A DNA stretch of 64,000 nt, from contig NZ_QFWH01000003.1 in NCBI RefSeq assembly GCF_003149375.1, positions 186,001 to 250,000 of the forward strand. The letters run 5' to 3'. The first letter of the stretch is position 1, and every line of letters begins with the position of its first letter. The notes under the pieces were generated by a model, which was not told where the DNA came from, did no database searches, and saw nothing but the letters and a program-made list of their open reading frames with translations. The translations under genes were made by a program, and so were the position numbers. Positions 27,386 to 44,401 of this stretch are shown here, piece by piece. The stretch is from Vampirovibrio chlorellavorus (GTDB lineage Bacteria > Cyanobacteriota > Vampirovibrionia > Vampirovibrionales > Vampirovibrionaceae).

Positions 27386-28762
27386 CTAGCTGCCCAGCAA
27401 GGCATCCTCAGGGTGGGGATGAGGCTCCACTACCGCCAGGCTCTTGCGCTCCTTGACCGTTTGCAGCATCAGGGTGGCCGCAATCATGGCCATGCCGCCA
27501 ATAATCAGGGCCACGGCCACGTTGTCGTTGAAGTAATCGTGAACGACTTTGCCCACCAGTAGATTACTGACCACACCGGGCGCGGCGATAAAGATGTTGA
27601 AGGTGCCCATCATGACGCCTTCCTTGCCCTTGGGCAGGTGATCCGACAACAGGGCGAAGGGGATGGACAGGGTGGTGGCCCAGCCGATGCCGATCAGGCC
27701 CATGGCGATCATGATTTGCAGGGGGGAGTGAATGAACCACATGGACAGAAAACTGCCGGCCATGCAAAGCAGACCCAGCGAGTGAACCGCTTTCTTGGAG
27801 CTGAGCCCGCACAGTTTGCCAATGAACATGGAGAATACGAAGCAGACCCCATTCAGGATGGCGTAGCCGATTTGCACCAGTTGCACGCCTTCGGCGTAGC
27901 GGGCGCTTTGGGGATCGGTGGCCCCGAAGATATGATGGGGGACATAGACGGAGAAGAAGGTAAACAGGCACATCAGGCCAAACCAGGTCATGCTGTGAGC
28001 CAGACAGAGCTTCAACCCCTCCTTGGGCATGCTGGCGATGGACTTGAGGGTACCCACCAGAAAATTATCCTGCGGCTCGGAACTGGCTTCCGGGGAGCTG
28101 TACTGGATGCCCACCGGCGGTTGCTCCGGGGTGGTCAGGCTGGTCCACAGCATGGCCAGCAACATGGCCCCGGCTCCCAGATAAAACAGGCCGTGCAGGC
28201 TGGGGAATTGGGCGGCAATGACGAAGGCGGCCACTGAGCCCAGGCCGATGGTAAAGCTCATCATGGAATAGGCGGTGGCCTGCTGGCTGGGATGCACCAC
28301 GTCCGGCACTAGCGAGCGGTAAGGCCCCTGGGTGATGTTGATGCTGGCGTCCAGTACCCACAGCAACACGGCGGCCATCCACAGGGCGGACACGTTGGGC
28401 ATCAGCACCAGAGAGATAACTGTGAGAATGGCACCCAGCAACAGAAAGGGACGACGGCGGCCCATGGGCAGGCCGCAGCGATCGCTCAGGGCGCCTACAA
28501 TGGGTTGTACCAACACGCCGGTCACCGGCCCCGCGCAATTAATCAGGCCCAGCATTTGGGGATCCGAACCCAGACGCTCCAGCAAGGGGCCCATTTGTCC
28601 GTTCTGGATGGCCCAGGCGAATTGTATCCCCAGAAAGCCCACGCTGATATTGAGTAACTGCCAGAAATTTTTCTGCTTCCAGGCATCGGGGTCGATGGGT
28701 GGCTTGATGCCTGTAACGCTGCGTTTTTCCTGGGCGGGGGGAGTTAGAATTCCTGGCGGCAT
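27386..28762 (-). CDS. MFS sugar transporter, SLC45/GPH-like
   Basis: Twelve-TM inner-membrane carrier, probably a proton-coupled disaccharide or oligosaccharide importer. Features of the SLC45-like sucrose/maltose family are visible: NISVGFLGIQFAWAIQNGQM, the loop 2-3 motif GPVTGVLVQPIVGALSDRCG and GRRRPFLLLGAILTVISLVL. The TM4-5 motif LDASINITQGPYRSLVPDVV is also typical. At 458 residues it has normal length. The next genes upstream encode glucan enzymes, which supports a role in glucose-polymer metabolism. The exact sugar is inference. The ribosome-binding site is weak (AAGGAA, 11 nt). Confidence 0.85.
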   Translation of the reverse strand: MPPGILTPPAQEKRSVTGIKPPIDPDAWKQKNFWQLLNISVGFLGIQFAWAIQNGQMGPLLERLGSDPQMLGLINCAGPVTGVLVQPIVGALSDRCGLPMGRRRPFLLLGAILTVISLVLMPNVSALWMAAVLLWVLDASINITQGPYRSLVPDVVHPSQQATAYSMMSFTIGLGSVAAFVIAAQFPSLHGLFYLGAGAMLLAMLWTSLTTPEQPPVGIQYSSPEASSEPQDNFLVGTLKSIASMPKEGLKLCLAHSMTWFGLMCLFTFFSVYVPHHIFGATDPQSARYAEGVQLVQIGYAILNGVCFVFSMFIGKLCGLSSKKAVHSLGLLCMAGSFLSMWFIHSPLQIMIAMGLIGIGWATTLSIPFALLSDHLPKGKEGVMMGTFNIFIAAPGVVSNLLVGKVVHDYFNDNVAVALIIGGMAMIAATLMLQTVKERKSLAVVEPHPHPEDALLGS

Positions 28763-28988
28763 AAAAACGATAATTCCTTCACGGCAGGTGCCATGTCTTA
28801 ATGAAAACGGAAGCGAACGAGATGTGTGTCCATTTGCGCTATTAATGTAAACCCCTAACGGACGCCTTCTATTGTCCTACACCGGCGCTGAATTGACCAG
28901 CGACCCGAAACCACCTAGCCGAAATAAAACAAAATGAGGGCATTGAAGGGGAAAATACAGCTTTATATTTCTTCACCAAAGCCAATAT

Positions 28989-31900
28989 TTAAGCGGACGT
29001 TCCGGGCGTGTCACGTTTCAAAATGCGCTTCAAAATGCGGTTGGCCTTGATGTCAAATTTGGTGGCCTCAGTCACGCCATCGTCAGCCAGTTTCACCAAC
29101 TCACCGCTTTCCTTCAGCTTGAAGCGTTCTTTGGTTTCGATATCCACGTAAACTGTGCCCGCTTTCAAGTGGTCGGACTTCAGCGGTAAGGCATTGAGGG
29201 TGCGTCCTGGTTCGCTCCACTGACCCTGGACGTTGCTGTAGCGATCGGGGCTGGTTTTGTCGTTGGTGTCCAGCGCCGGGATTTGCTTGCCGTTGGCGGT
29301 GTTGGGTTTGCCGGTATCCACCAGCACAATGACCTGATCCGCCCCGTTGTCCCGAATAATGGGCAAAATGCCGTGTGCATCGTTGGTTTCCACCGGCAGA
29401 ACAATCCCGTCTGTCAGCACGGATAACTGCTTGCGGCTGTTGAAAATTTGTCCCACCCGCTGCCAGTATTTGCCAAATTCACTGTCTTGGCCTTCTTGCA
29501 GGCGATCGGTACGGATGATGCCCCGGTTTTGGCTGTAAATATTTTTGGTAAATTCACTGCCACCCTGGCCGAACAAATCCGGCAGGTATACGGAGGGGTT
29601 GCCGGGTAAGGCGTTCTGAATGGCGAAAATACGTTCCTGCTTGGCCAGCACGGGAGACATGGCCGTGTTGTACAGGTTGAGTTTCAGCGTTTCAATCTGA
29701 GGTTGAGTGAGGTTCGTTTCTCTGAGTCCTTTATGGGCGTAATGAAACACCTGATTCAAAGCGGCATCCAGTGGCATGTAGCCAAAGTGGGCGCCCCATT
29801 GTTGAATGGCCTGATCCAGACCCTTCCAAATGGCTTCCTGTTGCGGGGTGGTGAGGGCGCTCGGATTGTTTTTCAGCACGTCTGCCATGGCGTTGTTGAT
29901 GATCCCCCGCATGGCTTTGGCCTCACCGGGTTCGGCCATGCGATTCTTGAGGATGTCCTCAAGTTTGTCCAGTGCTTGCTTCTGTTGCGCTGCGTTTGTG
30001 CCCTTCAATACCGGGCTGAGTTCCGTCAGTTCCCGTAACACGGAGCGGTCGTTGCTGCCCACACCTTTCTCTGGATCCAGGCGATTTTCGATTAATCCAC
30101 GCAGCTGTTTGGGGAATTGGGTACGTAAATCCATAGGAAGGGCGCCCCGCAAGTAGTGTTTCTCGCGCTCTGTTTTTTCATCCCATAAAGCGGCTTTGGC
30201 TTTTTCCGTGTAAATTTCAGCAGGCCAGGTAGGCTTCTCCTTGGACAGGGTGCCGGGGATATCGGCGTTGCTGGCCGGTTGTAGCCATTTTCGGAAGGTG
30301 GTCAGCCACTGGTCTAAAGTGTTGTCATCGGGCAGCCCCAATGCCTGTTTCAACTCGTCTCGTCGATGGGCGAAGCTGGGCATATATTGCACTTCGTGCA
30401 GGCCCTGATCCATAAACTCCAGCAGGCCGGGCTTTTGACTGCGATCCTGATTGAACAGTTCCGGGTTGATCAACAGGGCGTGGCTGGTGGTGCTGAAGTC
30501 GTGGCTGCCGGTCAGGTTCTGGAAATTGCGCTGGGCGAACAGGGGCACTTCCTGCGTCATTTTTTCCACATGGTTTTTCAGGAAATGGTTGGGCGTCATC
30601 TGGGAAGCCCCGAATTCATCGGGTCGCTGGGCGTAGTTGACCAGTTGCAGCAGCGGGCTGTAGGTATGCTCCATGTTGGGGGCGCTGGTAAAGGTGTTGC
30701 TCTCAAACAGGCTTTTTTTCAGGGCCTGCCCTTCCTGACTGTGATCATCGTCTCGGGCCAGCAAGCCAAAATCGGTCAATTCGGCGATGACCGAAGCCTT
30801 GGGGAACACGCCCCGCATGGCGTCGCCCAGCTTTTGTCCCCAGAATTCGTTGAGGTACTTCACCTGCTCCCGGAAGGCCTCACGGGCTTTTTCCGTGTTG
30901 GGGGCCTGACGCACTTGATCCAAATCGGCCACGTCTTTAGCGGCGTCAATCCGCCAGTTCAGTCCAAACTCCCGTTCCTTCAGCACGTTAGCGGCCAGAT
31001 TGACCAGCGAGGGCTCCAGATCCTGCACGATTTTTTCAACTTCTTCCCGAATTTGCACTTGCAGTGACGGCTCGTTCTTGGGGCCAGGGTAGTTCAGCTC
31101 CCGCAGGCGCTGGCGAATTAAAATGGGCAAGCGGCGGGCCGCCTCCCGAGGAGGGGCCTCAATCAGGCTGGGTGGCAGGCTCTCGTAAAAGGCCGTTTCC
31201 AGCGCTTCGGGGTTGAGGGCCAGTTCTTCAGCCTCTTTCAGGCTTTTTCCGGTAATCAGGCTAATGTATAACTTTTCTCCCAACTGATCGGCCACAATGT
31301 CCTGAATGGCCTCATGGCGCAGTTTGTATCCGGCTGAATTCTCTTTGTTTAAGTCCAGCTCGTTGAAAATCTGCTGCATTTTGCGGCCCACCGCTTTTTC
31401 AATGCGTGGGGAAAACACAAACTGGCTGAGGTATTCAAAGGGCTTGCCCACATACGGAATGTCAATCAGGGTGAGGAAGCGATCCTCCAAAGCGTTCATC
31501 AGCTTGCCCTGCCGCAGGGGCAGCGATTTTAAAAACTGGTCTTCATTCAGGTTGGCCTTGAACAGGATGGGAAAAGGCACCGTGTTCAAGGGCACATTTT
31601 GCAGCAGGGTATGGGCAAAGGCCTGACCGGTTTGGACCCCCTCGAAGGTGGGCTCGCTGTTGGCAAATTCCTTGAGCGTGTCCTCTTTGAAATGGTCGAC
31701 TGGCAGCGCGGTTTTGGGCGGTAAAATACCGTAGGTTGGCTGAATATCCGGGGGACCGTCCCTCAGCGTTACACTTTCTAAAATCTCGGCGGCTGTCGGT
31801 TCTTTTGTCTTGTCCTGAGAGGCCGCTTTGAGTGCCTGTTTGGCTTTGGCCATGTTCACCGCCACCTGATGGGTGTAGTGGTTCATTACCATGCGGCTCC

Positions 31901-33365
31901 AGTAATTGACAGCGCCTTTCAGGTAATTCACTACCTCGGGACTTTGGGTGTTCATCAGGGCCACATCCAGTTGCCCGTCCCATTTTTTGGAGGAATGATC
32001 GTTATCTGGCGTGGTCAGGCTCAGGTTTTTCCAGTCCAGAAATTTGGCCTTGGGATTCAGCCCCTCGCTGCTGGCTTCCAGCTTGGCTTTCACTTCTTTT
32101 GGATCCACCGGGAAGCGATACTTTTGCACGGAGTTTTTACTGCTTTTCAACTCGGCGGCCAGCTCCGGGCTGACCCGTTTGGGCTGGCCCTGTTCATCTT
32201 CCAGTCGGGGATCATACAGTTCGATAAACGTGGGTTTGACTGCCTGATAATCGTCCTGCACCGGGTTGTTGAGGATGCGGATGGCAAAGGCGTCAAAGTC
32301 AACCTCGCTGCGTCCGGCAATGGTTTTGGTGGGTAAAACGCCAAACTTGTAGGGTTCCTGGGCCAGACTGGGCAGCTTGCTGCGATCGCTGGTCTCGTTT
32401 TCCCCGAAGTGGAACCAGGTGCCCCAGTAGGGGGAGTTGGCCCGATGGCGCAGGTTGGAGAGAACCTGTATCCCGTTCATACCCTGGTTGACGAAGGCGC
32501 CGTCGGCAATCACCTTCATGCCGTTTTTCAGCATTTCATCCAATGAATTGCGGAAGGTTTGCTTGTTGCGGAAGGTGTCGTTCAGGATGTAGGGATCGGT
32601 GGTCCAGTAGCGATGAGAGGACAGGTTATCCCCGCCGATGAACGGTTTGAACAGTACCGCGGAAAATCCCTGATCCTTGATCTTGGGAATCAGCTCCCTG
32701 AAACCATCTTCGTGGCCTTGCCCGGCCGCCTTGGCGAATGCCAGAGTGTCGGCCGTGTCGAGCTTATCGGTTGGCGGCTGTTGCCCCAGAGTGATTTGGT
32801 TGAACTTGTTGAAGTGGTTGCGCACGGGCAAGACGGGCAGGCGTTTTTGGGAGGCCTGAATGTTCCAGTTCCGCGCTTGCCGCTCCTGCACGTCCAGCGC
32901 TTGAATCTGATCCTGGGTCAGGATGCTGTCGGCGTAAATATCAGCGATGACCGAGCTTTTCTGTGGGGTTTGCAAATCGTGCAGGGCAATGCGGTTGAAG
33001 GTATCGGCCTGCTTGGTTTTGCTGTTCTGCACCTGTACCGTTTCCAGATAATCCAGAGGCACGGTCACTGGTTTTTCATCTTCGTCCAGGGCTTCAAAGC
33101 GATAAACGGCTCCCGCTTTCAGGCCTTTGTGATTTTGTAAGCGCCAGTACCCGCTTTGGGCGTCTTTGGTTAAGGCCACGGTTTCCGCGTTGGCGGCGTC
33201 GGCATTGGGAGAACTCAAAATTTTGGCGTGGACTCTGGCGATTTTAGGGTCCTGAAACCCGGGCAAAAACAGCTCGATTTTGTCTGTTTTGCCATCGGTT
33301 TTAGCCTCAGATCTATCATAGCGATATCCAGAAAAGCGAACGGTGGGTGGCTTGATACTGGTCAC
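28989..33365 (-). CDS. Giant GH13-type glucan enzyme with ~520-residue gap between regions I and II
   Basis: Alpha-amylase-superfamily protein, probably cytosolic (no signal peptide), acting on alpha-glucan. GTG 33365 is preceded by AAAAGGAAA at 9 nt; frame codons further upstream lack such a signal. The product has 1,458 residues. Residues ~8-150 form a beta-sandwich resembling CBM48. GH13 region I is VIADGAFVNQG (D288), region II NWRIDAAKDV (nucleophile D807), region III VIAELTDFG (acid E862) and region IV LTGSHDFSTT (D956). The whole triad is kept. Between regions I and II lie ~520 residues, against ~100 usual, with a helical part that includes AVNMAKAKQALKAASQDKTK. The last ~500 residues hold another helical part and a C-terminal beta domain. 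Branching, transferase or hydrolase activity cannot be decided. Confidence 0.8.
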   Translation of the reverse strand: MTSIKPPTVRFSGYRYDRSEAKTDGKTDKIELFLPGFQDPKIARVHAKILSSPNADAANAETVALTKDAQSGYWRLQNHKGLKAGAVYRFEALDEDEKPVTVPLDYLETVQVQNSKTKQADTFNRIALHDLQTPQKSSVIADIYADSILTQDQIQALDVQERQARNWNIQASQKRLPVLPVRNHFNKFNQITLGQQPPTDKLDTADTLAFAKAAGQGHEDGFRELIPKIKDQGFSAVLFKPFIGGDNLSSHRYWTTDPYILNDTFRNKQTFRNSLDEMLKNGMKVIADGAFVNQGMNGIQVLSNLRHRANSPYWGTWFHFGENETSDRSKLPSLAQEPYKFGVLPTKTIAGRSEVDFDAFAIRILNNPVQDDYQAVKPTFIELYDPRLEDEQGQPKRVSPELAAELKSSKNSVQKYRFPVDPKEVKAKLEASSEGLNPKAKFLDWKNLSLTTPDNDHSSKKWDGQLDVALMNTQSPEVVNYLKGAVNYWSRMVMNHYTHQVAVNMAKAKQALKAASQDKTKEPTAAEILESVTLRDGPPDIQPTYGILPPKTALPVDHFKEDTLKEFANSEPTFEGVQTGQAFAHTLLQNVPLNTVPFPILFKANLNEDQFLKSLPLRQGKLMNALEDRFLTLIDIPYVGKPFEYLSQFVFSPRIEKAVGRKMQQIFNELDLNKENSAGYKLRHEAIQDIVADQLGEKLYISLITGKSLKEAEELALNPEALETAFYESLPPSLIEAPPREAARRLPILIRQRLRELNYPGPKNEPSLQVQIREEVEKIVQDLEPSLVNLAANVLKEREFGLNWRIDAAKDVADLDQVRQAPNTEKAREAFREQVKYLNEFWGQKLGDAMRGVFPKASVIAELTDFGLLARDDDHSQEGQALKKSLFESNTFTSAPNMEHTYSPLLQLVNYAQRPDEFGASQMTPNHFLKNHVEKMTQEVPLFAQRNFQNLTGSHDFSTTSHALLINPELFNQDRSQKPGLLEFMDQGLHEVQYMPSFAHRRDELKQALGLPDDNTLDQWLTTFRKWLQPASNADIPGTLSKEKPTWPAEIYTEKAKAALWDEKTEREKHYLRGALPMDLRTQFPKQLRGLIENRLDPEKGVGSNDRSVLRELTELSPVLKGTNAAQQKQALDKLEDILKNRMAEPGEAKAMRGIINNAMADVLKNNPSALTTPQQEAIWKGLDQAIQQWGAHFGYMPLDAALNQVFHYAHKGLRETNLTQPQIETLKLNLYNTAMSPVLAKQERIFAIQNALPGNPSVYLPDLFGQGGSEFTKNIYSQNRGIIRTDRLQEGQDSEFGKYWQRVGQIFNSRKQLSVLTDGIVLPVETNDAHGILPIIRDNGADQVIVLVDTGKPNTANGKQIPALDTNDKTSPDRYSNVQGQWSEPGRTLNALPLKSDHLKAGTVYVDIETKERFKLKESGELVKLADDGVTEATKFDIKANRILKRILKRDTPGTSA

Positions 33366-33645
33366 GGCTGAAAGTTTCCTTTTAAAGCAATCGTCAAAAT
33401 CGACCTTGAAAAATTGAACCCGTTTGCAATGGATGGCTTGCCTGCGATTCAGTGTATCGATGCGAGACAACCAGAAGCAACCATGTGAAACGCATGATGC
33501 GGCAAGGTTTGCAGACCCCTGAAAGTTTTACCTGCATCAGTCATACTATAAAAGTTCTGGCATGCCAAAAGTTGCGAATCAATTTCAGTATGGGTTGCCT
33601 GTGAGTGTATCTGGTTAAAGATAATAAAAGCAATTTAGTTAACAA

Positions 33646-33681
33646 TCATGAAACCAGTTGGCTTTCCCGTGTGTTTCATGA
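33646..33681. promoter_or_regulatory. Inverted repeat in divergent promoter region of glucan genes
   Basis: TCATGAAAC (33646-33654) is mirrored by GTTTCATGA (33673-33681), with half-site centres 27 bp apart (under three helical turns). It lies in the 33366-33840 gap between the giant GH13 gene (-) and the three-gene operon (+). Position and symmetry suggest an operator for coordinate control. The rest of the ~475-bp gap is AT-richer than its neighbours and has no gene. Confidence 0.4.
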
Positions 33682-33840
33682 CAATTATTAGCATTGAGGG
33701 CTGTTATATGAGTAGCTCCAAAGACAGGGGTCTTGGTTCACCGTACAATCACAGCCCTACACATTTCAAACACGGTCAACACAATCTGCCGGAAACCGGC
33801 AAGTATTCGAAAGTCTAGGGGTCTCTTTCGGTTTTTTTGC

Positions 33841-35235
33841 ATGGGTATCACACCAACCATTACATCCTATCCCAACCCGGCAGGAGCCAGTCTCCGTCCC
33901 CCTTTCACGCCTTGGGGGCAGCTTGTTGCGCCCCTTGCCAGTCAGGCACTTACCAGCCAGGTAACCAATGGCGTGAATCCGGCCCTGTTGTACCGTCAGG
34001 ATACCCGCCCGGCACCGGTCACCGAGTTACTGGCTGACCCCATCACCCGTAAAAAATACGGCCTGAGTACCCCCTTCGACGACACTTTGCTGCGCTTGTC
34101 CCCCTGGGGTAAATTGAAACTGTCGGCAAATGAAACTTTGGTGAAATTGCCCAAAACGCTCTATCACGGGTTGCGGGGCGATCAAAAATTCACCTTTTCC
34201 AATTTCCTGAACGTGACCAGCATTCCCTACTATCTGGGTGGCGCTGTTTTGGCCCTCAGTTTCCGGGCCGGACGGGCCCATCTGGATTTTTCCCGCCAGG
34301 CGGTAGGGGTTTTGCTTTACTATCTGGGCACCCGGGCCGCCAATACGTGTATCGACAACTTCTACAAGGCTAAAACCGGGGTGGATTTAAACCTGCGTTT
34401 CCGTAAAGCCAATGGCGATGTGGAGCGGGTGTTCGCCAGTACGGACTTCCCCCGTTTTGATCTGCTGGAGAGCAAGGACTATCGCCGCATGATGACCCGT
34501 TTGGGGGTGCCGGACGATGTGTCTGATCCCAAGCGAGAGGTGCAGGATCGGGTGCGCACCATCATCAGCGCCGCTCGGGCGGACAAGCTGATTTTAGGAA
34601 ACATTCTGGCTGCCGTGGGGGCCGGTTACATTGCCCGCAGCGATGCCTGGGCCAATGTGATGCAGGGCGGTCCCGGTGGTTGGGGCAACCTGAAAAATAT
34701 CTGGAATTTGTCAAACAAGCTGGAAGGCGGGCCGTTCGATCGTCTGGCGAACACGGGTAGCCATGTGGCTTCCAAAGTCGCCGAACCTTTCAAGGAAGCC
34801 TTTTTCGGGAAGGCCAACACGGCCGGTATGAGCGCTTTGGACATTCGTCACGCCAACCTGAAACGCTACGGGGTATGGGGCACCGTGGGGACGCTGGGGG
34901 CCATGATTCTGGCTCACAGCTGGATTGCCAGCCGTCCCAGCCGCAAAGCCTTTGAGTCGCCATTTATTACCAATCTCTCACCGGCCCTGGCACCGGAGCA
35001 ATCCGCCGTTACGGCCGCCATTCAGCAGCAGCTACCGGGTGGCTCGGTGGATAAACTGCCCCGTAAAGGGGTGTTTGAGGTGGCACAGCGGCTGGAGTCC
35101 GGTCAGTCCTCTCCCGCTCAGCAGGTTTTGCTCACTCAGAACGCGCCTGCCTTTACGGGCGTGACCCCGGGGCTTGGCAACGGTTTTCTCCCTTGGCCTG
35201 CTCTGGCCCAGTTCCCTGAAGGGAGGGTTCAATGA
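33841..35235 (+). CDS. Uncharacterised membrane protein, KTGV family member A
   Basis: Not recognised. ATG 33841 is chosen because upstream codons in frame are unlike coding sequence; the ribosome-binding site is weak. The protein has 464 residues. The first ~45 residues are Pro/Gly-rich. Hydrophobic segments occur at residues ~125-170 (SIPYYLGGAVLALSF; AVGVLLYYLGTRAANTCID), ~248-265 (ILGNILAAVGAGYIA) and ~345-360 (GTVGTLGAMILAHSWIA). The motif KAKTGVDLNLRF follows the first pair (Lys178 of KTGV). It aligns position for position with the next gene, so the two are tandem paralogues. Its stop overlaps the next start (ATGA), so translation is coupled. Confidence 0.7.
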   Translation: MGITPTITSYPNPAGASLRPPFTPWGQLVAPLASQALTSQVTNGVNPALLYRQDTRPAPVTELLADPITRKKYGLSTPFDDTLLRLSPWGKLKLSANETLVKLPKTLYHGLRGDQKFTFSNFLNVTSIPYYLGGAVLALSFRAGRAHLDFSRQAVGVLLYYLGTRAANTCIDNFYKAKTGVDLNLRFRKANGDVERVFASTDFPRFDLLESKDYRRMMTRLGVPDDVSDPKREVQDRVRTIISAARADKLILGNILAAVGAGYIARSDAWANVMQGGPGGWGNLKNIWNLSNKLEGGPFDRLANTGSHVASKVAEPFKEAFFGKANTAGMSALDIRHANLKRYGVWGTVGTLGAMILAHSWIASRPSRKAFESPFITNLSPALAPEQSAVTAAIQQQLPGGSVDKLPRKGVFEVAQRLESGQSSPAQQVLLTQNAPAFTGVTPGLGNGFLPWPALAQFPEGRVQ

Positions 35236-37076
35236 TTGGAAGCGGCTTGCCGCCAGTCTATGGGGCTGGCTGGTCGACAGGCTATCAGACCAAGTCCTTC
35301 AGCCCGCCGGTCTCTCCCAATGGCTGGGTCCGCCAGCACTGGCGTCCTGTACTGAACCCCATGATGGGCCCCAGCACCCTGCTGCCGCCAGTCAAAGTGG
35401 CCAATACCCCGCCGGTGAACTTGCCGGTGCAGGCACCGCCTTCCAACGATGACTTACAGCAAAAGTATCCCGGGCTGTATGCCCGCCTGGCCAAAAACCA
35501 ACTGGTGGAAGACCTGAAGCCGGATCTGGTAGGGGTGGCCAAAACACTGGGGCAGGTCAGCCGTCAGCAGCCGGTCAAAGATTCCAGCATGGCTGATCTG
35601 GATGACAATATGAAGCGCTTTGGCAGTTTGGCCATTGCCTCGCTGGCCACTTTGGGGCTGAAGCAAAAGATTCTGGGTGTGGGAGAGTACGTTGGCTTTT
35701 TAAGCTGGTTTGCGGCCATGGCGGCCACGCCCACGGTCATTAACAATATGGTTCGCCTGAAGACCGGTGTTAATTTGGGGCAGAAGTACGACAGCACCTA
35801 CGGTGAGCGGCTCAACATCTTTAAAGATCCCAACTACCTGCCGTTGCACATTTTACCGCCGGATGAGATGGCCAAGGTGGCCAAGCGGCTGAACGTTCCG
35901 CCGGGGCCCAACCAGCGCCTGGAAACCGAAGAAAAAATGCGTCAGATTTCCGTGCAAACCCACACCTGGTGGATGCTGATGGCGGGCCCGGCGACCCCGG
36001 TGATTTCCGGTCTGGTGGCGGATAATCTGCAACAGCCGGTCATCCGGGGCTACAACTGGCTGGGAAGTCACTTTGCCAGTTGGCGGGCCAAGCAGTCCTT
36101 GTCCAAAGCCAGCGACGCCGTGTTTGAAAGTCGCCTGAAAGGGGCTGTGGATCGCCTGACGGGTGGCCTGCCAGAGTCCGAGTTGACCAGCTGGTGGAAA
36201 GATTTTGGGGAGGCCATCACCAAGGAAACTGGCTTGCGCAACGCCCTGACTCGCAAGGAGGTCATGGACGAGGGTGAGTATCTGCTGAGTGATAAAATTA
36301 CCCGCTATTTCACCAACGAGGCCAGGGACAAGCAGCGTCCAGTGGCCGGTTTCACCAAGGAAAAAGCGGATCGTACCCTGGCCTATCTGGCCCGCCAGTA
36401 TGAGGTGATTGAGAAATTTGATGAGAACGGCAAGCCGATTCGTGAATATGGCGGCAAGCTGGGCGCGCTGAGAGAAAAAGCGCTGGGACTGCTGCAAGGG
36501 TTTGAGGAGCAACTGGAGGCCGAGCGGAAGGCCACTCAGGACGCCGAAAAACTGACCAAACTGCAAAAGCGGATTGATCGGGTTCGCTGGTATGCCGCCG
36601 AGGTGGACAAGAATATTGTGAATGCCGGATCGACCGTGCAGCATTACCAGGCCACCATGAAAAAGGCCCTGAAAACCTTTGAGGCGGATTTGGCCAAGGA
36701 CAAGCTGGATAAGGCGGTTCATAAAATTCGTTTAAACCTGGATAACAGCAATGTGACCCATTTGCTGGATCAGAAGCTGCAAGGGCAGTCTCAGGTGGCC
36801 CGTCAATTAGGACGCTCGGCTTTTGCGGAGCTGGAAAACGCCATGGCGGGCGGTCAGACCCACACGGTGTCCAAGCTGATGGGCGCGAATCCCAAGACCC
36901 ACCTCATGCGGGTGCTTCGGGATGTGAAGGCCCATAGCATGTGGCGGAATCGCATGGTTTATGGTCTGGGTGGGGCGCTGTTCGCTGCCTCTGCCCTGTA
37001 CACCACGGTGATGGTAGGCCGCAACTTTAAGCCTGCCGCCCCTCCGCCGCCCAACCCACAGGGAGGGCAAGGATGA
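35232..37076 (+). CDS. Uncharacterised membrane protein, KTGV family member B
   Basis: Not recognised; paralogue of the preceding gene. 614 residues from ATG 35232. The N-terminal ~75 residues are Pro/Gly-rich (PPVYGAGWSTGYQ). Hydrophobic segments at residues ~135-175 (SLAIASLATLGLKQKIL; VGFLSWFAAMAATPTVI) are followed by the motif RLKTGVNLGQKY with Lys177, the same position as in member A. Another hydrophobic part is WWMLMAGPATPVISGLVADN. Unlike member A, it carries a long coiled-coil region (residues ~360-500; LEAERKATQDAEKLTKLQKR) and a C-terminal TM (YGLGGALFAASALYTTVMVG). Its ATG and stop codons both overlap neighbours as ATGA. Confidence 0.7.
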   Translation: MIGSGLPPVYGAGWSTGYQTKSFSPPVSPNGWVRQHWRPVLNPMMGPSTLLPPVKVANTPPVNLPVQAPPSNDDLQQKYPGLYARLAKNQLVEDLKPDLVGVAKTLGQVSRQQPVKDSSMADLDDNMKRFGSLAIASLATLGLKQKILGVGEYVGFLSWFAAMAATPTVINNMVRLKTGVNLGQKYDSTYGERLNIFKDPNYLPLHILPPDEMAKVAKRLNVPPGPNQRLETEEKMRQISVQTHTWWMLMAGPATPVISGLVADNLQQPVIRGYNWLGSHFASWRAKQSLSKASDAVFESRLKGAVDRLTGGLPESELTSWWKDFGEAITKETGLRNALTRKEVMDEGEYLLSDKITRYFTNEARDKQRPVAGFTKEKADRTLAYLARQYEVIEKFDENGKPIREYGGKLGALREKALGLLQGFEEQLEAERKATQDAEKLTKLQKRIDRVRWYAAEVDKNIVNAGSTVQHYQATMKKALKTFEADLAKDKLDKAVHKIRLNLDNSNVTHLLDQKLQGQSQVARQLGRSAFAELENAMAGGQTHTVSKLMGANPKTHLMRVLRDVKAHSMWRNRMVYGLGGALFAASALYTTVMVGRNFKPAAPPPPNPQGGQG

Positions 37077-38764
37077 CCATGCAGCTACCCCCGATTCAAA
37101 TGTTTCGCTATGGACAGCCGGTGTCTCCGTGGTCAGGTCGTCCTGAGCTGTCCCTGAGGAGTCAGGCACAGGGGGCCAACCTGCCGAGCCTTCCGGCCCT
37201 GTCCCCGCTGCCTGCCCCAGATGTGTTTGTGCGTCGGGCAGCCATGGGGCCCACGGCTGCTGGCCCAAGTTATCCCGCCAATGGCCTGTTTACCATGGGA
37301 GCCATTCCTCCAAGCATTGCCCCGCAGCCCGTTTGGCAGAATCGTCTCAAGCGCATGTTTCATAACAATCAGGCTTCCATCTACGCCCTGAACATTCGCA
37401 CCTTTGGGGCCAAGGATAAAAATCTTGATGGCCGAATTTCTCCCATTTCCGGCGAGAATGGCACTTTTTTGTCGGCGGTGCAGAATCTGGACCAACTGGT
37501 GGCCTTGGGCGTCAACACCATTCACCTGCTGCCCATTAACCCCATTGGGCAGGCCCGCCGCTTTGGGGCCGCTGGCAGCTTGTACGCCCCCTCCGATTAT
37601 CATTCCGTCAACCCCGAGTTTGACACCCCCGGTAACAGCACCACGGCTTTGGAAGAGGCCCGTCAGTTCGTAGAGGAGTGTCACAAGCGCAATATTCACG
37701 TGATGGTGGATGTGCCCAGTTGCGCTTCGGAGGACTTGGCCCAGTCCCGACCGGATCTGATTCTGAAGGATCGCCACGGTAACAAGCTGACCCCTACCAA
37801 TTGGGTGGATATCGTCATGTTCAAGAACGACGATGCCCTGCGTCAGTATTACGAAGGCTTTTTTGATTTGATGGCCAACCAACTGGGCGTGGATGGCTTC
37901 CGGGTAGACGTGGCCCGTGCCCGCACGCCTGATTTTTGGCGTTACTTTACCGGTAAATACGCCGATAAGGCTTGGCTGGCTGAAAGTTACTGCGAAGAGG
38001 ATCAGTCGCCTTTAAAAAACCTGCCCCGGGATATTCCCGAAACCCTGCTGAAATCCGGTTTTGATTCCATTTACGGACAGTTCCATATTTTCCACGCCAT
38101 GCCCAACGCCAAGGAGTATATGGATTACTTGCTGTCCAACCGGGCCATGTTCCAGCGGGCCAGCCAGCAAGGCGGCAACGATAAATCGTTCATCGGCTCG
38201 TTTTTGACCCACGATGACCCCAGCCTGATGGAACACGGCGGCGCCCCCATGTGTCTGCTGGCCTCCGGCTTGATGACCACCCAGCCGTGGACCAATCCCT
38301 ATATTCTGGACGGCTTTACCACGGGCTACACCGGGGAGTTCGATATTTTTAACTTTGTACCCCAGCACAAGGGAACCCACCCGGAAATCGGACTGTTTTT
38401 AAAGCACATGCTGACCCTGCGCAACAGCCCGCAATACGGTCCCGTGTTGACCCAGGGGGCTTTTATTCCCATTCCGGTCAACAGTGAGAATCCCAACAAT
38501 CAGGTCATTTCCTTTGCCCGTCAGGCCAACGGAAAAACCTTGCTGGTGGTGGCCAACAAGGATGTCAACGCCCGCTCTCGGGCCACTCTGTCCATCCCGG
38601 GGATGAATTCCTTCCAGCCGTTGAACAACCTGGCTCCCAGCTACGGGCGTCCCAGTCAGTTTTATCCCGGCGTCAATCAGCTGGAAGTGGACTTGGGGCC
38701 GGGTCGCTTCCATATTTTTGAAATCAACACACCGTTTCTGTCCCGCTCATTGCCCACCTATTAA
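37073..38764 (+). CDS. GH13 alpha-glucan enzyme, maltosyltransferase-like
   Basis: Alpha-amylase-superfamily enzyme coupled in translation to two membrane proteins. 563 residues; GGGAGGGCAAGG precedes the ATG at 37073 (a second ATG at 37079 is possible). The N-terminal ~75 residues are low-complexity, with QLPPIQMFRYGQP near the start. Region I is VMVDVPSCASED (D213; the usual Asn-His are replaced by Ser-Cys), region II GFRVDVARA (R277, D279), region III WLAESYCEED (E304) and region IV LTHDDPSL (H380, D381). Region I resembles the aberrant one of Thermotoga maltosyltransferase. A C-terminal beta-domain (LLVVANKDVNARSRATLSIP) completes it. Maltosyl transfer is inference; hydrolysis is also possible. 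Confidence 0.8.
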   Translation: MTMQLPPIQMFRYGQPVSPWSGRPELSLRSQAQGANLPSLPALSPLPAPDVFVRRAAMGPTAAGPSYPANGLFTMGAIPPSIAPQPVWQNRLKRMFHNNQASIYALNIRTFGAKDKNLDGRISPISGENGTFLSAVQNLDQLVALGVNTIHLLPINPIGQARRFGAAGSLYAPSDYHSVNPEFDTPGNSTTALEEARQFVEECHKRNIHVMVDVPSCASEDLAQSRPDLILKDRHGNKLTPTNWVDIVMFKNDDALRQYYEGFFDLMANQLGVDGFRVDVARARTPDFWRYFTGKYADKAWLAESYCEEDQSPLKNLPRDIPETLLKSGFDSIYGQFHIFHAMPNAKEYMDYLLSNRAMFQRASQQGGNDKSFIGSFLTHDDPSLMEHGGAPMCLLASGLMTTQPWTNPYILDGFTTGYTGEFDIFNFVPQHKGTHPEIGLFLKHMLTLRNSPQYGPVLTQGAFIPIPVNSENPNNQVISFARQANGKTLLVVANKDVNARSRATLSIPGMNSFQPLNNLAPSYGRPSQFYPGVNQLEVDLGPGRFHIFEINTPFLSRSLPTY

Positions 38765-38822
38765 TTGAAGGTGAGGGCAGACTCACCTGATTTAATCTTT
38801 CCGGAAGCATCTCAAGACATGG

Positions 38823-38905
38823 TGCGGCCTGTCATTCCCACCTGCGTTGGAATGACAAATACCTCTATAGGGAAGCATCTCGTAGCACGACAGGGCAGCA
38901 TTCCG
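38823..38905. repeat. Dispersed intergenic repeat, shorter copy
   Basis: Shares three blocks with 58547-58684. These are TGCGGCCTGTCATTCCC (38823-38839, identical), GGAATGACAAATA (38849-38861, identical) and a 19-bp block ACGACAGGG... (38887-38905, 17/19). TGTCATTCC and GGAATGACA form a hairpin with a 10-nt loop. It lies between the convergent GH13 and GT5 genes. Confidence 0.7.
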
Positions 38906-38931
38906 AATCTTTCCGGGAGATCGTGCTTTTT
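38884..38931 (+). terminator. Possible terminator at end of GH13 operon
   Basis: AGCACGA (38884-38890) pairs with TCGTGCT (38921-38927), followed by TTTTTA. The loop is long (30 nt) but includes a smaller ATTCCG/CCGGGA pairing. It overlaps the repeat copy at 38823-38905, which may have supplied it. Confidence 0.4.
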
Positions 38932-38935
38932 AGGG

Positions 38936-41902
38936 TTAATCTTTTCGCAGTGAGAACAGTCGGCCCACGGCGGCCCAGAATTGCTCGTTGCGCTGCCACA
39001 GCCAGGTCCAGTAGCGTTTGATATTGGCCACAACACCGGCGTTGTTCTCCACGGGCCCTGGGCTTGGACGGGTCTGCACGTACTGGGGCTCAGCCGGTGT
39101 CGGTGGGTTTAAGGCCGCCCGGAAGGCGTTGAGTTCATTCGTGTGTTGTTCGCGGATTTTGGCGTCCACACGGTTGGATTCCAGGGCGGGCAGGTAGTAA
39201 TTCTGGATAATTTTTTCCCAGCTATGCTCGGTGTCCACATACTTGATGGCATTAATGCGGGTTTCTGTATCTTTCCCGCTCTTCAGCAACTCAAATCCGC
39301 GATAGAAAGCGTCGGTCAGCTTGTCGGCGGCTTTCTGATTGATTTCATCATTTGGCTGAATGATCGTAAGAACTTTGTTGTACTGGGTTTCCAGATCCTG
39401 AGGGTTTTCTTTCAGCAGGCGGTGGGCGTCCCGGATTTCCTGGGCATGCTCGGAAAATTTGCCGTTCTTAATTTTATTGCTTAACTGATCTCGTTTCTCT
39501 TCCATGGCCTTTTTGCGCTGGGGAGAAGCGGTGGGATCTGCCTCCAGCCGAGCCAGGGCGTCCTGGAAATCTTTTCGTTGAATCTCAAAACTTTTCAGTT
39601 TGTAATCCAGGGTGTTGGCCAGCCCTTCCATTTTGCCCAGCAGGGCCACAAATGCCTTTTGCTCCGCCGCCTTCAGCTTGGCTTCTTCTTTGGCGTCGGG
39701 CTTGCTTTTCAAGGCTTCCAGCGCCGACCGGTTTGTGACCAACGCTGCCTTCAACCGCTCCAGATGCTCATAATCCTGCCGATCATCGATGTACTCCTTG
39801 TACTGATCGATGTCTAACGGATCCATCAAAAAACCGTTTTGGGGCTTATCCCAGACCGGTTCCCATTCTTCTCCGGCGGCGCGGGCTTTCTCTTTCAGTT
39901 TGGCGTTCATGTCCGGTTCGCTAACCGTGGTGCGCAAGCCATCCACCCCATGCACCACCGGCAGGGAACCCATTTTCATGGCCTCCAGCTGGGTCAGGCC
40001 GTAGGGTTCGTATAAGCTGGGCAGGGCTGTGAAATCGGCCCCGGCGTTGATCTGCTTGACCTCATCCTGGGTGGCGAACACGTTGGGGATGTACACCCGA
40101 TTCTCACCAGAATTGGTGTTGTATTTTTTGTTAACGCCCTCGATCCACTTAATGATTTCTGGATCCGTGGTATCCCCCACCATGACCACCTGAACATCGG
40201 GGTTATTGGCCAGCAGGGTGTCCACGCTTTTCATGAATACGTACACGTTCTTCTGGCGAGGATCCAGCCGGGCGGCCCAGGCAATAATAGGGGCATTGGT
40301 ATCCTGCTTGAGGCCCAGCTTTTTTTGCAGGGCCATTTTATTGGCCCTTTTAAACGCCTGCATTTGTTCGGCCGTGGGTAGTGTTTCGCCCGGATGGACT
40401 TCCAGCTTCTGGAATTTATACGGCTGATTGTCCTTGGCGGTGCGCCCCGCTTCCGCTGCCGTGATTTGGGTGGTGATTTTTTTCAGATTCTTTTCAGCGT
40501 TATTCCAGGCTTCTTTGGCCAGTTCGGTTTGGGCCGGGTCATTTTGCTGCTGGATGGTTTCGAATTTCTCTTTCAGCGTTTCGACTTCTGTTTCCAGTTT
40601 GGCCTTTTTAGCCACCGCGTTTTGGTGCCACTCGTCATACCCTTCTTCCAGGCACCTGGGGGCTTGCGGGCCAGAGGCGGTGTAATCCGAGCTGAGGCCG
40701 TGGTGCAGGTTGTAAGTGCGCTGGTCCTCGCTTTTTTGGCGCAAGGTACTGATAAAAGGCGCGCCGTTGGGCAGGGTGCTTTCCAGCATGGTGCGCTTGA
40801 AGTTGTTGTTCACCCAAATGGAATCGGCGGGTTCAATGCCCGCGTTCAGGGCGGAAAAAGTGCGTTCCTGATCAAACAGGCGGTTCGGGGTGAGCAGACC
40901 CGCCCGGTGGGCCACGTGAGGGGCCTGTTCCTTATCGAACATGTTATGCACCACAAAGTGCTTGCGGGTATAGGGATCGTCCGCCAATTCGTTGTTGACC
41001 GGGCCGGTCAGCCAGTCGTGGGCGATCACAAAGTCAATGCTCTTGCGGAAGTCTTTGCCCTTGGGCACTTCCACGCCCTCCAGGACCGGGAACTCCGCCG
41101 GTTTATGAAGGTTGTTGAAGCGCTTCAATCGGGCGGCCCGAGGGTCGGGGTTGTTGCCATCCAGCAGGGGCACCAATTCGCTGGCCGCCCGGTTGAACAG
41201 CATAACCTTGTCAAATTCGCCCGCTTCCGGGGTGTAGGTGTAATCGGACAATCCTTTTTCCGTCTCAAGGCCGTATTTGTTTTTCCCGATGAAGTAGTTG
41301 TCGTTGCGCAGGGCGTACACCCAGTTGCCTACTCGCTTTTCTTCCGGCTGGGTGTGGTTGAATTCCTCAAAGCCGGTGGCGCTCTCAAATTTTTGCAGCA
41401 CTTCCAGCTTGATGGTGCGGTGATCGTCTGTCTTGTAGGACAAAAAAGTGCCGGTGGGTTGAAATAAATCCGCCTCGGAAACGGTCTTGTCGCCTTTGGC
41501 AATTTTGTCCCGGATTTCCTGATCGACCTTGCGGTGCGCTTTCATGTAGGGGACGATAATGCGCAAGTCCTTTTTGTGGGTGAATTGGGCAAAGGCCTCC
41601 GGGATGGTTTTGGACACTTCGCCCAGCCCGCCCACCTTGGCCGGAATACGTTCGGTGGTGATCCACACCCCGTTTTGGGGCTGATGATCAATGTTGCCCC
41701 GGGAAGGAATGCTGGCGGAGCCGAAGCGGATTTTCAGGCGATCCGACGGGCCTTGCAGGCCGGGAGTCAAGGTACCCATTCCGATACCGGTATTTGCAGG
41801 GTGGGCCGTTTGGGTTGAAGGGGCTACACTGGCCGCTCCGAAACGAACCTGCCGCCGTGGGTCAGGATACAACTGGGGACGGTTTTGTATGGTGTAGGAC
41901 AT
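38936..41902 (-). CDS. GT5 glycogen/starch synthase, extended with coiled coils
   Basis: Transfers glucose from ADP- or UDP-glucose to alpha-1,4-glucan. 988 residues, about double E. coli GlgA (477). The N-terminal ~70 residues are low-complexity with a repeated motif, QVRFGAAS (20-22) and KIRFGSAS (59-61). The catalytic part starts at ITTERIPAKVGGLGEV (K89, the K-x-G-G-L sugar-nucleotide motif). It continues with IDFVIAHDWLTG and PSLYEPYGLTQLEAMKMG (catalytic Glu 632). Between K89 and E632 about 180 residues are added, including a coiled coil (KLETEVETLKEKFETIQQQN). A ~250-residue coiled-coil tail follows the second Rossmann domain. The ribosome-binding site is weak. Donor specificity cannot be read from sequence. 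Confidence 0.85.
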   Translation of the reverse strand: MSYTIQNRPQLYPDPRRQVRFGAASVAPSTQTAHPANTGIGMGTLTPGLQGPSDRLKIRFGSASIPSRGNIDHQPQNGVWITTERIPAKVGGLGEVSKTIPEAFAQFTHKKDLRIIVPYMKAHRKVDQEIRDKIAKGDKTVSEADLFQPTGTFLSYKTDDHRTIKLEVLQKFESATGFEEFNHTQPEEKRVGNWVYALRNDNYFIGKNKYGLETEKGLSDYTYTPEAGEFDKVMLFNRAASELVPLLDGNNPDPRAARLKRFNNLHKPAEFPVLEGVEVPKGKDFRKSIDFVIAHDWLTGPVNNELADDPYTRKHFVVHNMFDKEQAPHVAHRAGLLTPNRLFDQERTFSALNAGIEPADSIWVNNNFKRTMLESTLPNGAPFISTLRQKSEDQRTYNLHHGLSSDYTASGPQAPRCLEEGYDEWHQNAVAKKAKLETEVETLKEKFETIQQQNDPAQTELAKEAWNNAEKNLKKITTQITAAEAGRTAKDNQPYKFQKLEVHPGETLPTAEQMQAFKRANKMALQKKLGLKQDTNAPIIAWAARLDPRQKNVYVFMKSVDTLLANNPDVQVVMVGDTTDPEIIKWIEGVNKKYNTNSGENRVYIPNVFATQDEVKQINAGADFTALPSLYEPYGLTQLEAMKMGSLPVVHGVDGLRTTVSEPDMNAKLKEKARAAGEEWEPVWDKPQNGFLMDPLDIDQYKEYIDDRQDYEHLERLKAALVTNRSALEALKSKPDAKEEAKLKAAEQKAFVALLGKMEGLANTLDYKLKSFEIQRKDFQDALARLEADPTASPQRKKAMEEKRDQLSNKIKNGKFSEHAQEIRDAHRLLKENPQDLETQYNKVLTIIQPNDEINQKAADKLTDAFYRGFELLKSGKDTETRINAIKYVDTEHSWEKIIQNYYLPALESNRVDAKIREQHTNELNAFRAALNPPTPAEPQYVQTRPSPGPVENNAGVVANIKRYWTWLWQRNEQFWAAVGRLFSLRKD

Positions 41903-42167: not shown

Positions 42168-44153
42168 TTAGTATTGCGCCGTTTTGGCCGGGGTGTTCAG
42201 TTGCAAGGGCGCGGCCTGAGTGTTGGTGGCCGGTGCGCTGTAAGGCATGCTGGCCCCGCCTTGCGGCTGCGGAGAACCGCTTTGCTTCAGGGCCATTTCC
42301 TGAGCCTTTTCTTGCAGTTTGGCGATTTTTTTCAGGTACCCTTCGCGCTCTTTCACCGGCAAGTCCGGGGATAAGCCCAGATAGAACTGGTAAGAGCGGG
42401 CGGCCAGATTGTATTCCTTGGTTTTTTCATACAACTTGGCCAGCTCCAGACGGGCTTCCGGCTGACGGGGGTTTTGGGACAAGGTGTCCTCGTAAAAATC
42501 GATGGAGCTTTCCTTGCCGGTGCGCCGCCAGGTGTTGAGGGCTTTGGCTGTACGCAGGGCTTTCTGGGACTCCGCCTCGGCTTTCTCAATCCGATCGATA
42601 CCCCGCTGGGCTTTCAGGTTACCCGGTTCGGCAGCCAGGGCGGCCCGGTAGGCGTCCTTGGCCCGGGGCAGATCCCCGTTCACCTTCAGGGTGTCGCCGA
42701 TGATCAGCAATTGGTCTGAATTGCCCGACGCCCGCTGCATCAGCCCGTTAAAGACCTGATCGGCTTCCTGATAACGTCCCAGCGACAGGTAGGCTTCTCC
42801 CTGGGCCATGGCTTCCGCGTCGTTTCGGGGGGACCGGCTGACCAGCGTGTTCAGCTCGGCTTCGGTCATGGCCGGTTTGCCAGCCAGTTGACTAATGCGC
42901 AGGTTGGCCAGGTGCAGGCGCAGGTCGCCCGGATTCATGCGCAGGGCTTCCTGAATGGACTGCTCGGCGTTCAGCAAATCGCTGTCGGCGCCCATGGTCT
43001 GGCTCCAGTTGGCCTGTTTTTGGGCAATGACCGTCAGGGCTTGGGAAATGCCGTTAATGGCATCGGCGTCCTGCGGGTTCTGCTTCAGGGATTCCTTGTA
43101 GTATTGCAGGGCCTGATCCGGCTTGTCCACAGTCAGGGCCAGGCGCCCCAGCCGGTTGCGACCTGCCGAGAAGTTGGGATTGACGTTGATGGCGCTGCGC
43201 AACTCGGACATGGCCAATTCGCCATCGCCCCGGCTGTCAAAAATATCGGAAATGGCCACATACGCTGGCATAAAGGCGGGGTTGGCCTGAATGGCCTTGC
43301 GGTAGTTGGCAATGGCCGCCGAGGTATTGCCCTGGGCCTGATAGGCGTCGGCCATTTTGGACATGACTGAGGCGTTGCCCTGATTCAGGGACAGGGCCGT
43401 GTTCAGGGATTTTAAGGCTTGGTGCGTGTCTCCGCTTTGCAAATAGGCTTCACCCAGCCGGTAGTGGGCCATGTAGTTTTTACTGTTTAGTTTAATGGCC
43501 CGTTGGAACTGTTGTTTGGCCCCGTTCACATCGCCGGAACTCAGGCGCATGATGCCTTCGTTCAGGATGGCTTCCGCAAAGCGGGGGTCCAGTTCCAGTG
43601 CTTTCTGAAACTCGCTTTGGGCCTCGGCGTTGCGTCCCATAAAGCGATAGGTTACCCCCAGCTGGTTGTGTGCTTCCGGGGAGCGGGGATTGGCTGCCAC
43701 GGCCTTTTGCAATTCACTGGCGGATTTGGCCAGTAGCTCATCCCGTTGACCCCGGTAGGTCATATCCAGCGAAGCGGTCTGGTTGCGGTACACAATCCCC
43801 AATGCGGTGCGGGCGGTGGCGTTATTGGGCGATTTGGCCAGCACCATGTTGGCGTTTTTCTCGGCGGCACCCAGTTTGAAGAGTTCCGCCTGGGCATTGG
43901 ACAAGGCCGCCCGGGCGGCGATGTTTTTAGGGTTGGCCTGTAACAGTTTGGTGTAACGGGCCTCCGCAGCCTGGTAGGCTCCGGTTTGCAGGTAGGCATC
44001 CGCATTTTGCGGATTATTGTAGGAATAGGAGGTTCCTGCCTTGTAAACCCGAGAGGCTGCTTCTGCCCCCAGGTTCGGGGTGACCAAGGCGGTCAGGGTT
44101 AACAGACTTACGCCACAGGCTATTGCCCACGCTCGGCTTGATTGAATCCTCAT
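42168..44153 (-). CDS. Exported TPR-repeat protein
   Basis: Large scaffold or adaptor protein. The ATG at 44153 opens a signal peptide (MRIQSSRAWAIACGVSLL, then TLTALVTPNLGAEA); GGAGAG lies about 11 nt upstream. The 661 residues then consist of roughly 14-15 tetratricopeptide units from residue ~45 to ~620. Clear examples are AYQAAEARYTKLLQANPKNI, AEAQSEFQKALELDPRFAEA, GDTHQALKSLNTALSLNQGN and NTSAAIANYRKAIQANPAFM. The C-terminal ~50 residues are Gln/Pro/Ala-rich and disordered. It is presumably periplasmic and involved in protein-protein contacts, but its partner is not shown. It is divergent from the response regulator at 44519. Confidence 0.88.
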   Translation of the reverse strand: MRIQSSRAWAIACGVSLLTLTALVTPNLGAEAASRVYKAGTSYSYNNPQNADAYLQTGAYQAAEARYTKLLQANPKNIAARAALSNAQAELFKLGAAEKNANMVLAKSPNNATARTALGIVYRNQTASLDMTYRGQRDELLAKSASELQKAVAANPRSPEAHNQLGVTYRFMGRNAEAQSEFQKALELDPRFAEAILNEGIMRLSSGDVNGAKQQFQRAIKLNSKNYMAHYRLGEAYLQSGDTHQALKSLNTALSLNQGNASVMSKMADAYQAQGNTSAAIANYRKAIQANPAFMPAYVAISDIFDSRGDGELAMSELRSAINVNPNFSAGRNRLGRLALTVDKPDQALQYYKESLKQNPQDADAINGISQALTVIAQKQANWSQTMGADSDLLNAEQSIQEALRMNPGDLRLHLANLRISQLAGKPAMTEAELNTLVSRSPRNDAEAMAQGEAYLSLGRYQEADQVFNGLMQRASGNSDQLLIIGDTLKVNGDLPRAKDAYRAALAAEPGNLKAQRGIDRIEKAEAESQKALRTAKALNTWRRTGKESSIDFYEDTLSQNPRQPEARLELAKLYEKTKEYNLAARSYQFYLGLSPDLPVKEREGYLKKIAKLQEKAQEMALKQSGSPQPQGGASMPYSAPATNTQAAPLQLNTPAKTAQY

Positions 44154-44401
44154 AAAATCAGGGCTCTCCACTCAACAATGTATTTTCATTGGCATCATAG
44201 CGAAATAGCAGTCCTGAATACATCCCTCTACAGTGTAATTGTCCGGCTTTTGGCATGCGGGTACCCTTCCGGAGCCTTTTTGGCATGGGATAGGGATGAG
44301 ACTGATTACCCACGCGTTACCCATCCATAGATGAGCCGATTAACTGTTTGGGTTACCCAGGGCTACACAAGGATAAGAAAGTCCTCTGCCTAACTAGCTA
44401 C

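What the first reader, a model, noticed from the sequence alone, without database searches (positions are those of the whole stretch)
27386..41902. Candidate undescribed glucan-metabolism system: two GH13 enzymes, extended GT5 synthase, KTGV membrane-protein pair and sugar transporter
Seen: an SLC45-like transporter, a 1,458-residue GH13-type protein, a three-gene operon (two paralogous membrane proteins and a GH13 enzyme, joined by ATGA overlaps) and a 988-residue GT5 synthase lie together. Known: GH13 and GT5 families make and remodel alpha-1,4/1,6-glucan. Inference: the KTGV membrane proteins could anchor or compartmentalise glucan synthesis or transfer at a membrane, which is unlike the cytosolic glg pathway.
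Basis: partly seen in the sequence, partly recalled or inferred. Interest (0 to 1): 0.85.

Follow-up and report, generated by a model that had tools for sequence, protein, structure and literature searches.

The report
Lineage-wide membrane-protein/GH13 glucan-enzyme operon
Non-photosynthetic relatives of cyanobacteria, including common gut bacteria and the algal predator Vampirovibrio, share an apparently undescribed three-gene operon that pairs a starch/glycogen-type enzyme with two related membrane-protein-like proteins of unknown family, suggesting that some of their glucan chemistry is held in place by a dedicated protein platform.

Summary
The window comes from a Vampirovibrio-genus genome. 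The core is the operon MP1-MP2-GH13B (33841-38764, two ATGA overlaps). MP1 and MP2 are remote paralogues with no Pfam, NCBIfam or PDB relative. The same gene order was found in all 31 loci inspected across five family-level groups. GH13B lies directly downstream of MP2 in 139 of 141 genomes where both hits were listed (the other two are on separate contigs), and MP2 is fused to GH13B in three genomes. MP2 was found in 246 of 335 class genomes, but in no sampled genome outside the class. Catalytic residues are conserved in GH13B (18/19) and in the giant GH13A (19/20), whose barrel is split by ~450-600- and ~175-300-residue inserts. GH13A is linked to the operon in Vampirovibrionaceae and a few other genera and is otherwise co-distributed but separable. 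The GT5 synthase and the transporter are only local neighbours. Best reading: a tethered alpha-glucan-active GH13 held by a lineage-specific MP1/MP2 platform. Membrane location and activity are inferred, not shown. No matching description was found in the papers searched.

The parts
33841..35235 (+). MP1: orphan membrane-protein-like protein (464 aa from the ATG shared with V. chlorellavorus; the mechanical ORF starts at 33733), paralogue of MP2
   Evidence: ORF; start by comparison; no Pfam or NCBIfam family; hhalign to MP2 E 2.9e-13
35232..37076 (+). MP2 (614 aa): orphan all-helical protein with the K-T-G-V motif and a hydrophobic C-terminal helix; immediately upstream of GH13B or fused to it
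   Evidence: low-confidence AlphaFold model, all helical (pLDDT 67); no PDB fold match with E <= 0.001
37073..38764 (+). GH13B (563 aa): GH13 amylase/maltosyltransferase-type enzyme with R277, D279, E304, H380, D381
35232..35235 (+). ATGA stop/start overlap MP1-MP2
37073..37076 (+). ATGA stop/start overlap MP2-GH13B
28989..33365 (-). GH13A (1,458 aa from the conserved GTG; ORF opens at 33470): neopullulanase-like GH13 whose barrel is split by long inserts; D842, E897, H990, D991 in the numbering of the 1493-aa ORF
33366..33840 (.). divergent intergenic region between GH13A and the MP1 operon (about 475 bp)
   Evidence: ORF coordinates
27386..28762 (-). MFS/GPH-type sugar transporter, next to GH13A in Vampirovibrionaceae; local neighbour only
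38936..41902 (-). Extended GT5 (starch/glycogen-synthase type, 988 aa) with an aromatic C-terminal tail; a second GlgA-like protein of the genome; local neighbour only

Best explanation
MP1 and MP2 are paralogous, probably membrane-associated proteins that form a platform, and GH13B is the alpha-glucan-active enzyme held by it, on MP2's C-terminal side. GH13B is probably a cytosolic-side amylase or 4-alpha-glucanotransferase/maltosyltransferase that trims or transfers alpha-1,4-glucan chains. GH13A is a large neopullulanase-like partner acting on the same glucan, present in most but not all of these lineages. In Vampirovibrionaceae a sugar transporter and, in some, an extended GT5 synthase lie nearby. 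Shown: gene order, co-distribution, fusions, conserved catalytic residues, GH13 membership. Inferred: membrane tethering, which side, substrate, reaction, and any contact with GH13A.
For: The triad MP1-MP2-GH13B is in the same order and orientation in 31 of 31 loci inspected. In the class-wide profile searches 139 of 141 genomes with both hits listed have GH13B directly downstream of MP2 on the same strand. MP2 and GH13B are one ORF in G005, G007 (C26) and G008. MP2 is absent from the sampled genomes outside the class and from sampled families f3, f4, f5, f7, f8 and f9. GH13B nucleophile and acid/base are 19/19 and the transition-state Asp 18/19; GH13A residues are 19/20. The GH13B profile matches amylases 4gkl and 3dhu, maltosyltransferase 1gju and GlgE; GH13A matches neopullulanase-type enzymes by profile and GH13 enzymes by fold. 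GH13A lies beside the operon in Vampirovibrionaceae, in f11 G252 and in f6 G162.
Against: Hydrophobic segments in the window's MP1 and MP2 are weak. The MP2 model is low-confidence and charge patterns do not settle topology. No activity is known. GH13A is separable: G256 and G302 keep it without MP2, and G087 has the triad without it. In nine core Gastranaerophilaceae loci the operon's upstream genes are envelope genes (KdsC-like, UppP and others), not glucan genes.
Confidence: 0.5

Rival explanations
1. Envelope role: MP1/MP2/GH13B process or transfer an alpha-glucan or other alpha-linked glycan destined for the cell envelope rather than storage glucan.
For: In nine core Gastranaerophilaceae loci the operon directly follows a UppP (BacA) gene, preceded by PTPS, KdsC-like and mostly KdsD-like genes; MP2 is probably a membrane protein.
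Against: That neighbourhood is missing in Vampirovibrionaceae and in the eight loci from other genera and families; no signal peptide is apparent on GH13B; GH13A and the transporter point to alpha-glucan/oligosaccharide chemistry.
Confidence: 0.2
2. Uptake metabolon: GH13A and GH13B convert imported oligosaccharides (sucrose/maltose type) as they enter through the MFS/GPH transporter, with MP1/MP2 keeping the enzymes near the transporter.
For: The transporter lies at GH13A in seven Vampirovibrionaceae loci, one ORF away in G003; V. chlorellavorus feeds on starch-storing Chlorella (PMC4451040).
Against: The transporter is not at the operon in f2, core f6 or the eight further loci.
Confidence: 0.15
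3. Ordinary intracellular amylase operon: GH13B is a housekeeping maltodextrin enzyme and MP1/MP2 are co-transcribed proteins with an unrelated job.
For: GH13 enzymes are common; adjacency alone does not prove interaction.
Against: Three natural MP2-GH13B fusions, near-perfect linkage across many genera, and MP2-less f6 genomes (G256, G288, G302, G316, G319) show only weaker, paralogue-level GH13B hits.
Confidence: 0.15

Closest known systems
GH13 alpha-amylases/maltosyltransferases (4gkl, 3dhu; 1gju maltosyltransferase; GlgE)
   Same: GH13B: same catalytic Asp/Glu/Asp and closest profile matches
   Different: Constant operon partner, sometimes fusion partner, of an orphan membrane-protein-like family; distant in sequence
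GH13 neopullulanase/cyclomaltodextrinase-type enzymes and Nostoc debranching enzyme NPDE (2wc7)
   Same: GH13A: catalytic residues and barrel; fold match TMt up to 0.72 to NPDE
   Different: About 1,280-1,610 aa, barrel interrupted by ~440-600 aa before the nucleophile and ~175-300 aa after the transition-state Asp
Classical GlgA-GlgB-GlgC-GlgP pathway
   Same: GT5 synthase family and GH13; a GlgA-sized GT5 (487-aa frame) lies elsewhere in the genome
   Different: Different GH13 types and orphan partners; no GH13-type GlgB over cut-off in this genome or in the four Gastranaerophilaceae tested
SLC3 heavy chains (rBAT, 4F2hc); analogy from own knowledge
   Same: A GH13 domain held at a membrane next to a transporter
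   Different: No homology of MP1/MP2 was shown; here the catalytic residues are intact and the GH13 is likely cytosolic

Membership tests
GH13 (GH13B) | Barrel with Asp nucleophile, Glu acid/base, Asp transition-state stabiliser and Arg two residues before the nucleophile | tested here: met
   R277, D279 and E304 19/19; H380-D381 18/19; PF00128 over cut-off
GH13 (GH13A) | Same residues in a TIM barrel | tested here: met
   19/20 sequences; AlphaFold of the G007 orthologue pLDDT 83, pTM 0.84, matched to GH13 structures
Neopullulanase/cyclomaltodextrinase subfamily of GH13 (GH13A) | Subfamily assignment by full-length similarity | tested here: inconclusive
   Best profile hits are of this type but cover mainly the first part of the barrel; best fold E-values go to maltooligosyltrehalose synthases
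Glycogen synthase GlgA (GT5) | Over the GlgA model cut-off | tested here: not met
   TIGR02095 131.6 bits against 328.45; membership of the GT5 fold family itself is supported (PF08323)
GH13-type branching enzyme GlgB (GH13A or GH13B) | Score above the TIGR01515 cut-off | tested here: not met
   Neither locus scores over the cut-off in the genome search; GH13B 11.9 bits
SLC45/GPH sucrose symporter (transporter) | TIGR01301 cut-off 511 bits | tested here: not met
   104.5 bits; MFS membership met
Any described membrane-protein family (MP1, MP2) | Match to a Pfam, NCBIfam or PDB entry | tested here: not met
   (only weak single-member or coiled-coil matches)
Integral membrane protein (MP1, MP2) | Transmembrane helices | tested here: inconclusive
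   Hydrophobicity scan only: 1-3 segments over 1.5 in most orthologues, none in the window copies

The most novel reading that the evidence does not exclude
MP1/MP2 form a dedicated membrane platform on which GH13B, and GH13A through its conserved N-terminal F-x-G peptide, build or remodel an alpha-glucan, taking the place of the GH13-type branching enzyme that most of these lineages lack: a membrane-organised glucan pathway unlike cytosolic glycogen metabolism. Open: GH57-type branching enzymes were not searched, two Vampirovibrionaceae with the operon also have GlgB, and enrichment of the peptide over the proteome was not established.
Probability: 0.12. Interest if true: 0.8.

Novelty: new variant of a known kind. 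Interest (0 to 1): 0.55.

Why it matters
Gastranaerophilaceae are widespread gut bacteria with little known biochemistry, and Vampirovibrio is an algal predator. A near-universal operon in these lineages that binds an alpha-glucan enzyme to two orphan protein families marks a core function that has not, as far as the searches show, been described, and V. chlorellavorus carries it. If the enzymes are tethered at a membrane, it would be a form of glucan metabolism organised differently from the soluble glg pathway.

Tried and rejected
A genome-wide N-terminal F-x-G tag: F46 is invariant in GH13A, but the motif is not clearly enriched over proteome samples; after removing GH13A orthologues the excess over reversed-motif and downstream controls is small, so it is not claimed. 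The MP2 fold search gave no PDB match with E <= 0.001 and the model is weak. The MP2 profile against PDB sequences gave only coiled-coil/helical-bundle noise. Pfam hits for MP1/MP2 members were single-member and incoherent. The six-gene 'system' was rejected as a unit because GT5 and transporter linkage is confined to Vampirovibrionaceae. Literature searches found no description of the operon. One family scan failed through a wrong coordinate and was not repeated.

Full report
Origin. The window is G000:C3:186001-250000. A same-genus genome, G004, carries the same block; a contig of matching length (217646) is Vampirovibrio chlorellavorus NCIMB 11383, LAPX01000008.1.

Observation. The six ORFs exist as described. 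GH13A has 1,458 aa from the GTG shared with its orthologues, and MP1 most likely starts at the ATG at 33841. MP1-MP2 and MP2-GH13B overlap by ATGA. MP1 and MP2 are homologous to each other and have no Pfam, NCBIfam or PDB relative that holds up.

The core unit. In every locus inspected MP1, MP2 and GH13B follow one another in one orientation: the window, 12 loci of Vampirovibrionaceae (f1) and the neighbouring family f2, 10 loci of core Gastranaerophilaceae (f6), and 8 loci from f10, f11 and further f6 genera, 31 in all; in G010 GH13B is cut by the contig end. (Family names f1 = Vampirovibrionaceae and f6 = Gastranaerophilaceae are my assignment from the named Vampirovibrio record and the size of the group; the tool gives numbers only.) MP2 and GH13B are one ORF in G005, G007 (C26) and G008. 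A class-wide profile search found MP2 in 246 of 335 genomes; GH13B-profile hits, which include general GH13 enzymes, were found in 293. Of 141 genomes whose two strong hits were both listed and compared in a script, 139 have GH13B directly downstream of MP2 on the same strand and the other two have the hits on different contigs. A phylum sample found MP2 in 131 of 292 genomes, all of them in the class. Five f6 genomes without MP2 (G256, G288, G302, G316, G319) have only weaker, paralogue-level GH13B hits.

The enzymes. GH13B keeps Arg277, Asp279 and Glu304 in 19 of 19 sequences and Asp381 in 18; its nearest solved relatives are amylases 4gkl and 3dhu, then a maltosyltransferase and GlgE, so hydrolysis and transfer are both open. 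GH13A keeps its residues in 19 of 20; the exception is a second copy in G007 that has lost all of them, and the second GH13B copy of G007 has lost the transition-state Asp. The G007 GH13A model is good (pLDDT 83, pTM 0.84) and matches GH13 enzymes over about 1,200 alignment columns, NPDE with TMt 0.72 and maltooligosyltrehalose synthases with the best E-values. Long inserts split the barrel.

Linkage of the rest. GH13A is divergent from MP1 in the window and in G001, G003, G004, G005, G007 and G008, directly after GH13B in f11 G252 and f6 G162, and 7.7 kb from MP1 in G176; it is unlinked in G009, f2 and core f6. It is separable: G316, G319 and G288 lack both, G256 and G302 keep GH13A without MP2, and G087 has the triad without GH13A. 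The transporter accompanies GH13A in Vampirovibrionaceae. The GT5 is adjacent in G000 and G004, on the same short contig in G002, and beyond the transporter in G008; elsewhere it is unlinked, and in G001, G003 and G007 it is next to a TPR gene, as it is in the window. GT5 in the genus ends in hydrophobic aromatic tails, which may bind membranes; this is inference.

Mechanism. Fusion and fixed order make it likely that GH13B works on MP2, and MP1 as its paralogue likely pairs with MP2. MP2 is predicted all-helical, with low confidence. Topology is undecided. GH13B shows no apparent signal peptide, so a cytosolic face is the simpler assumption. A GH13-type GlgB over cut-off is missing from G000, G001, G004, G009, G010, G014 and four f6 genomes, but present in G005 and G008, which also carry the operon; GH77 is present in all of these, phosphorylase-like hits in nearly all. 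This leaves room for, but does not show, a branching or transfer role. In nine core f6 loci the operon follows UppP, PTPS, KdsC-like and mostly KdsD-like genes, which keeps an envelope role open.

Limits. Co-distribution is strongly clustered by clade, so it is weaker evidence than the linkage and the fusions. All work is on sequence; no expression, localisation or activity data exist here.

Known literature. The V. chlorellavorus genome paper reports 123 carbohydrate-active enzymes and proposes that most of them degrade prey polysaccharide, including starch (PMC4451040); the first Melainabacteria paper predicts starch and glycogen fermentation (PMC3787301). A review of prokaryotic alpha-glucan enzymes does not name these organisms in the part held (PMC11046441). 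No paper found describes the operon.

Noticed in passing
window GH13A residues 44-48 (VRFSG, 1493-aa numbering), GT5 residues 19-23 and 58-62; GH13B of L158, L160, L161, L163; MP1 of L097-L105: A short N-terminal motif of the form [VILP]-x-F-x-[GA] (or close to it) recurs in non-homologous members of this set in distant families; F is invariant in 20 GH13A sequences. Several other lineage-specific proteins carry it, but genome-wide enrichment was not established.
   Followed up: partly
window 52367 (+), 234 aa: Protein with the same kind of N-terminal motif (MPTQQTRLGVQHLSFNGFQ); family not determined.
   Followed up: no
L107, L108, L110, L111, L114 (GH13A C-termini): In Gastranaerophilaceae GH13A also ends with a related motif, often followed by a basic LYNPQY-like stretch (e.g. 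LTFTGRKVLYNPQY).
   Followed up: no
L085 and L086 (G007): A second operon copy and a second GH13A in G007 have lost catalytic residues (GH13B transition-state Asp; all of GH13A), suggesting pseudoenzymes beside intact copies.
   Followed up: partly
L097-L105: Conserved upstream block (KdsD-like, KdsC-like, PTPS, UppP) before MP1 in core Gastranaerophilaceae.
   Followed up: partly
window 42168-44171 (-): TPR protein that also neighbours the extended GT5 in G001, G003 and G007, where GT5 is away from the operon.
   Followed up: partly
genomes: No GH13-type branching enzyme over cut-off in the window's genome and in four Gastranaerophilaceae that have GH77 and GT5.
   Followed up: partly
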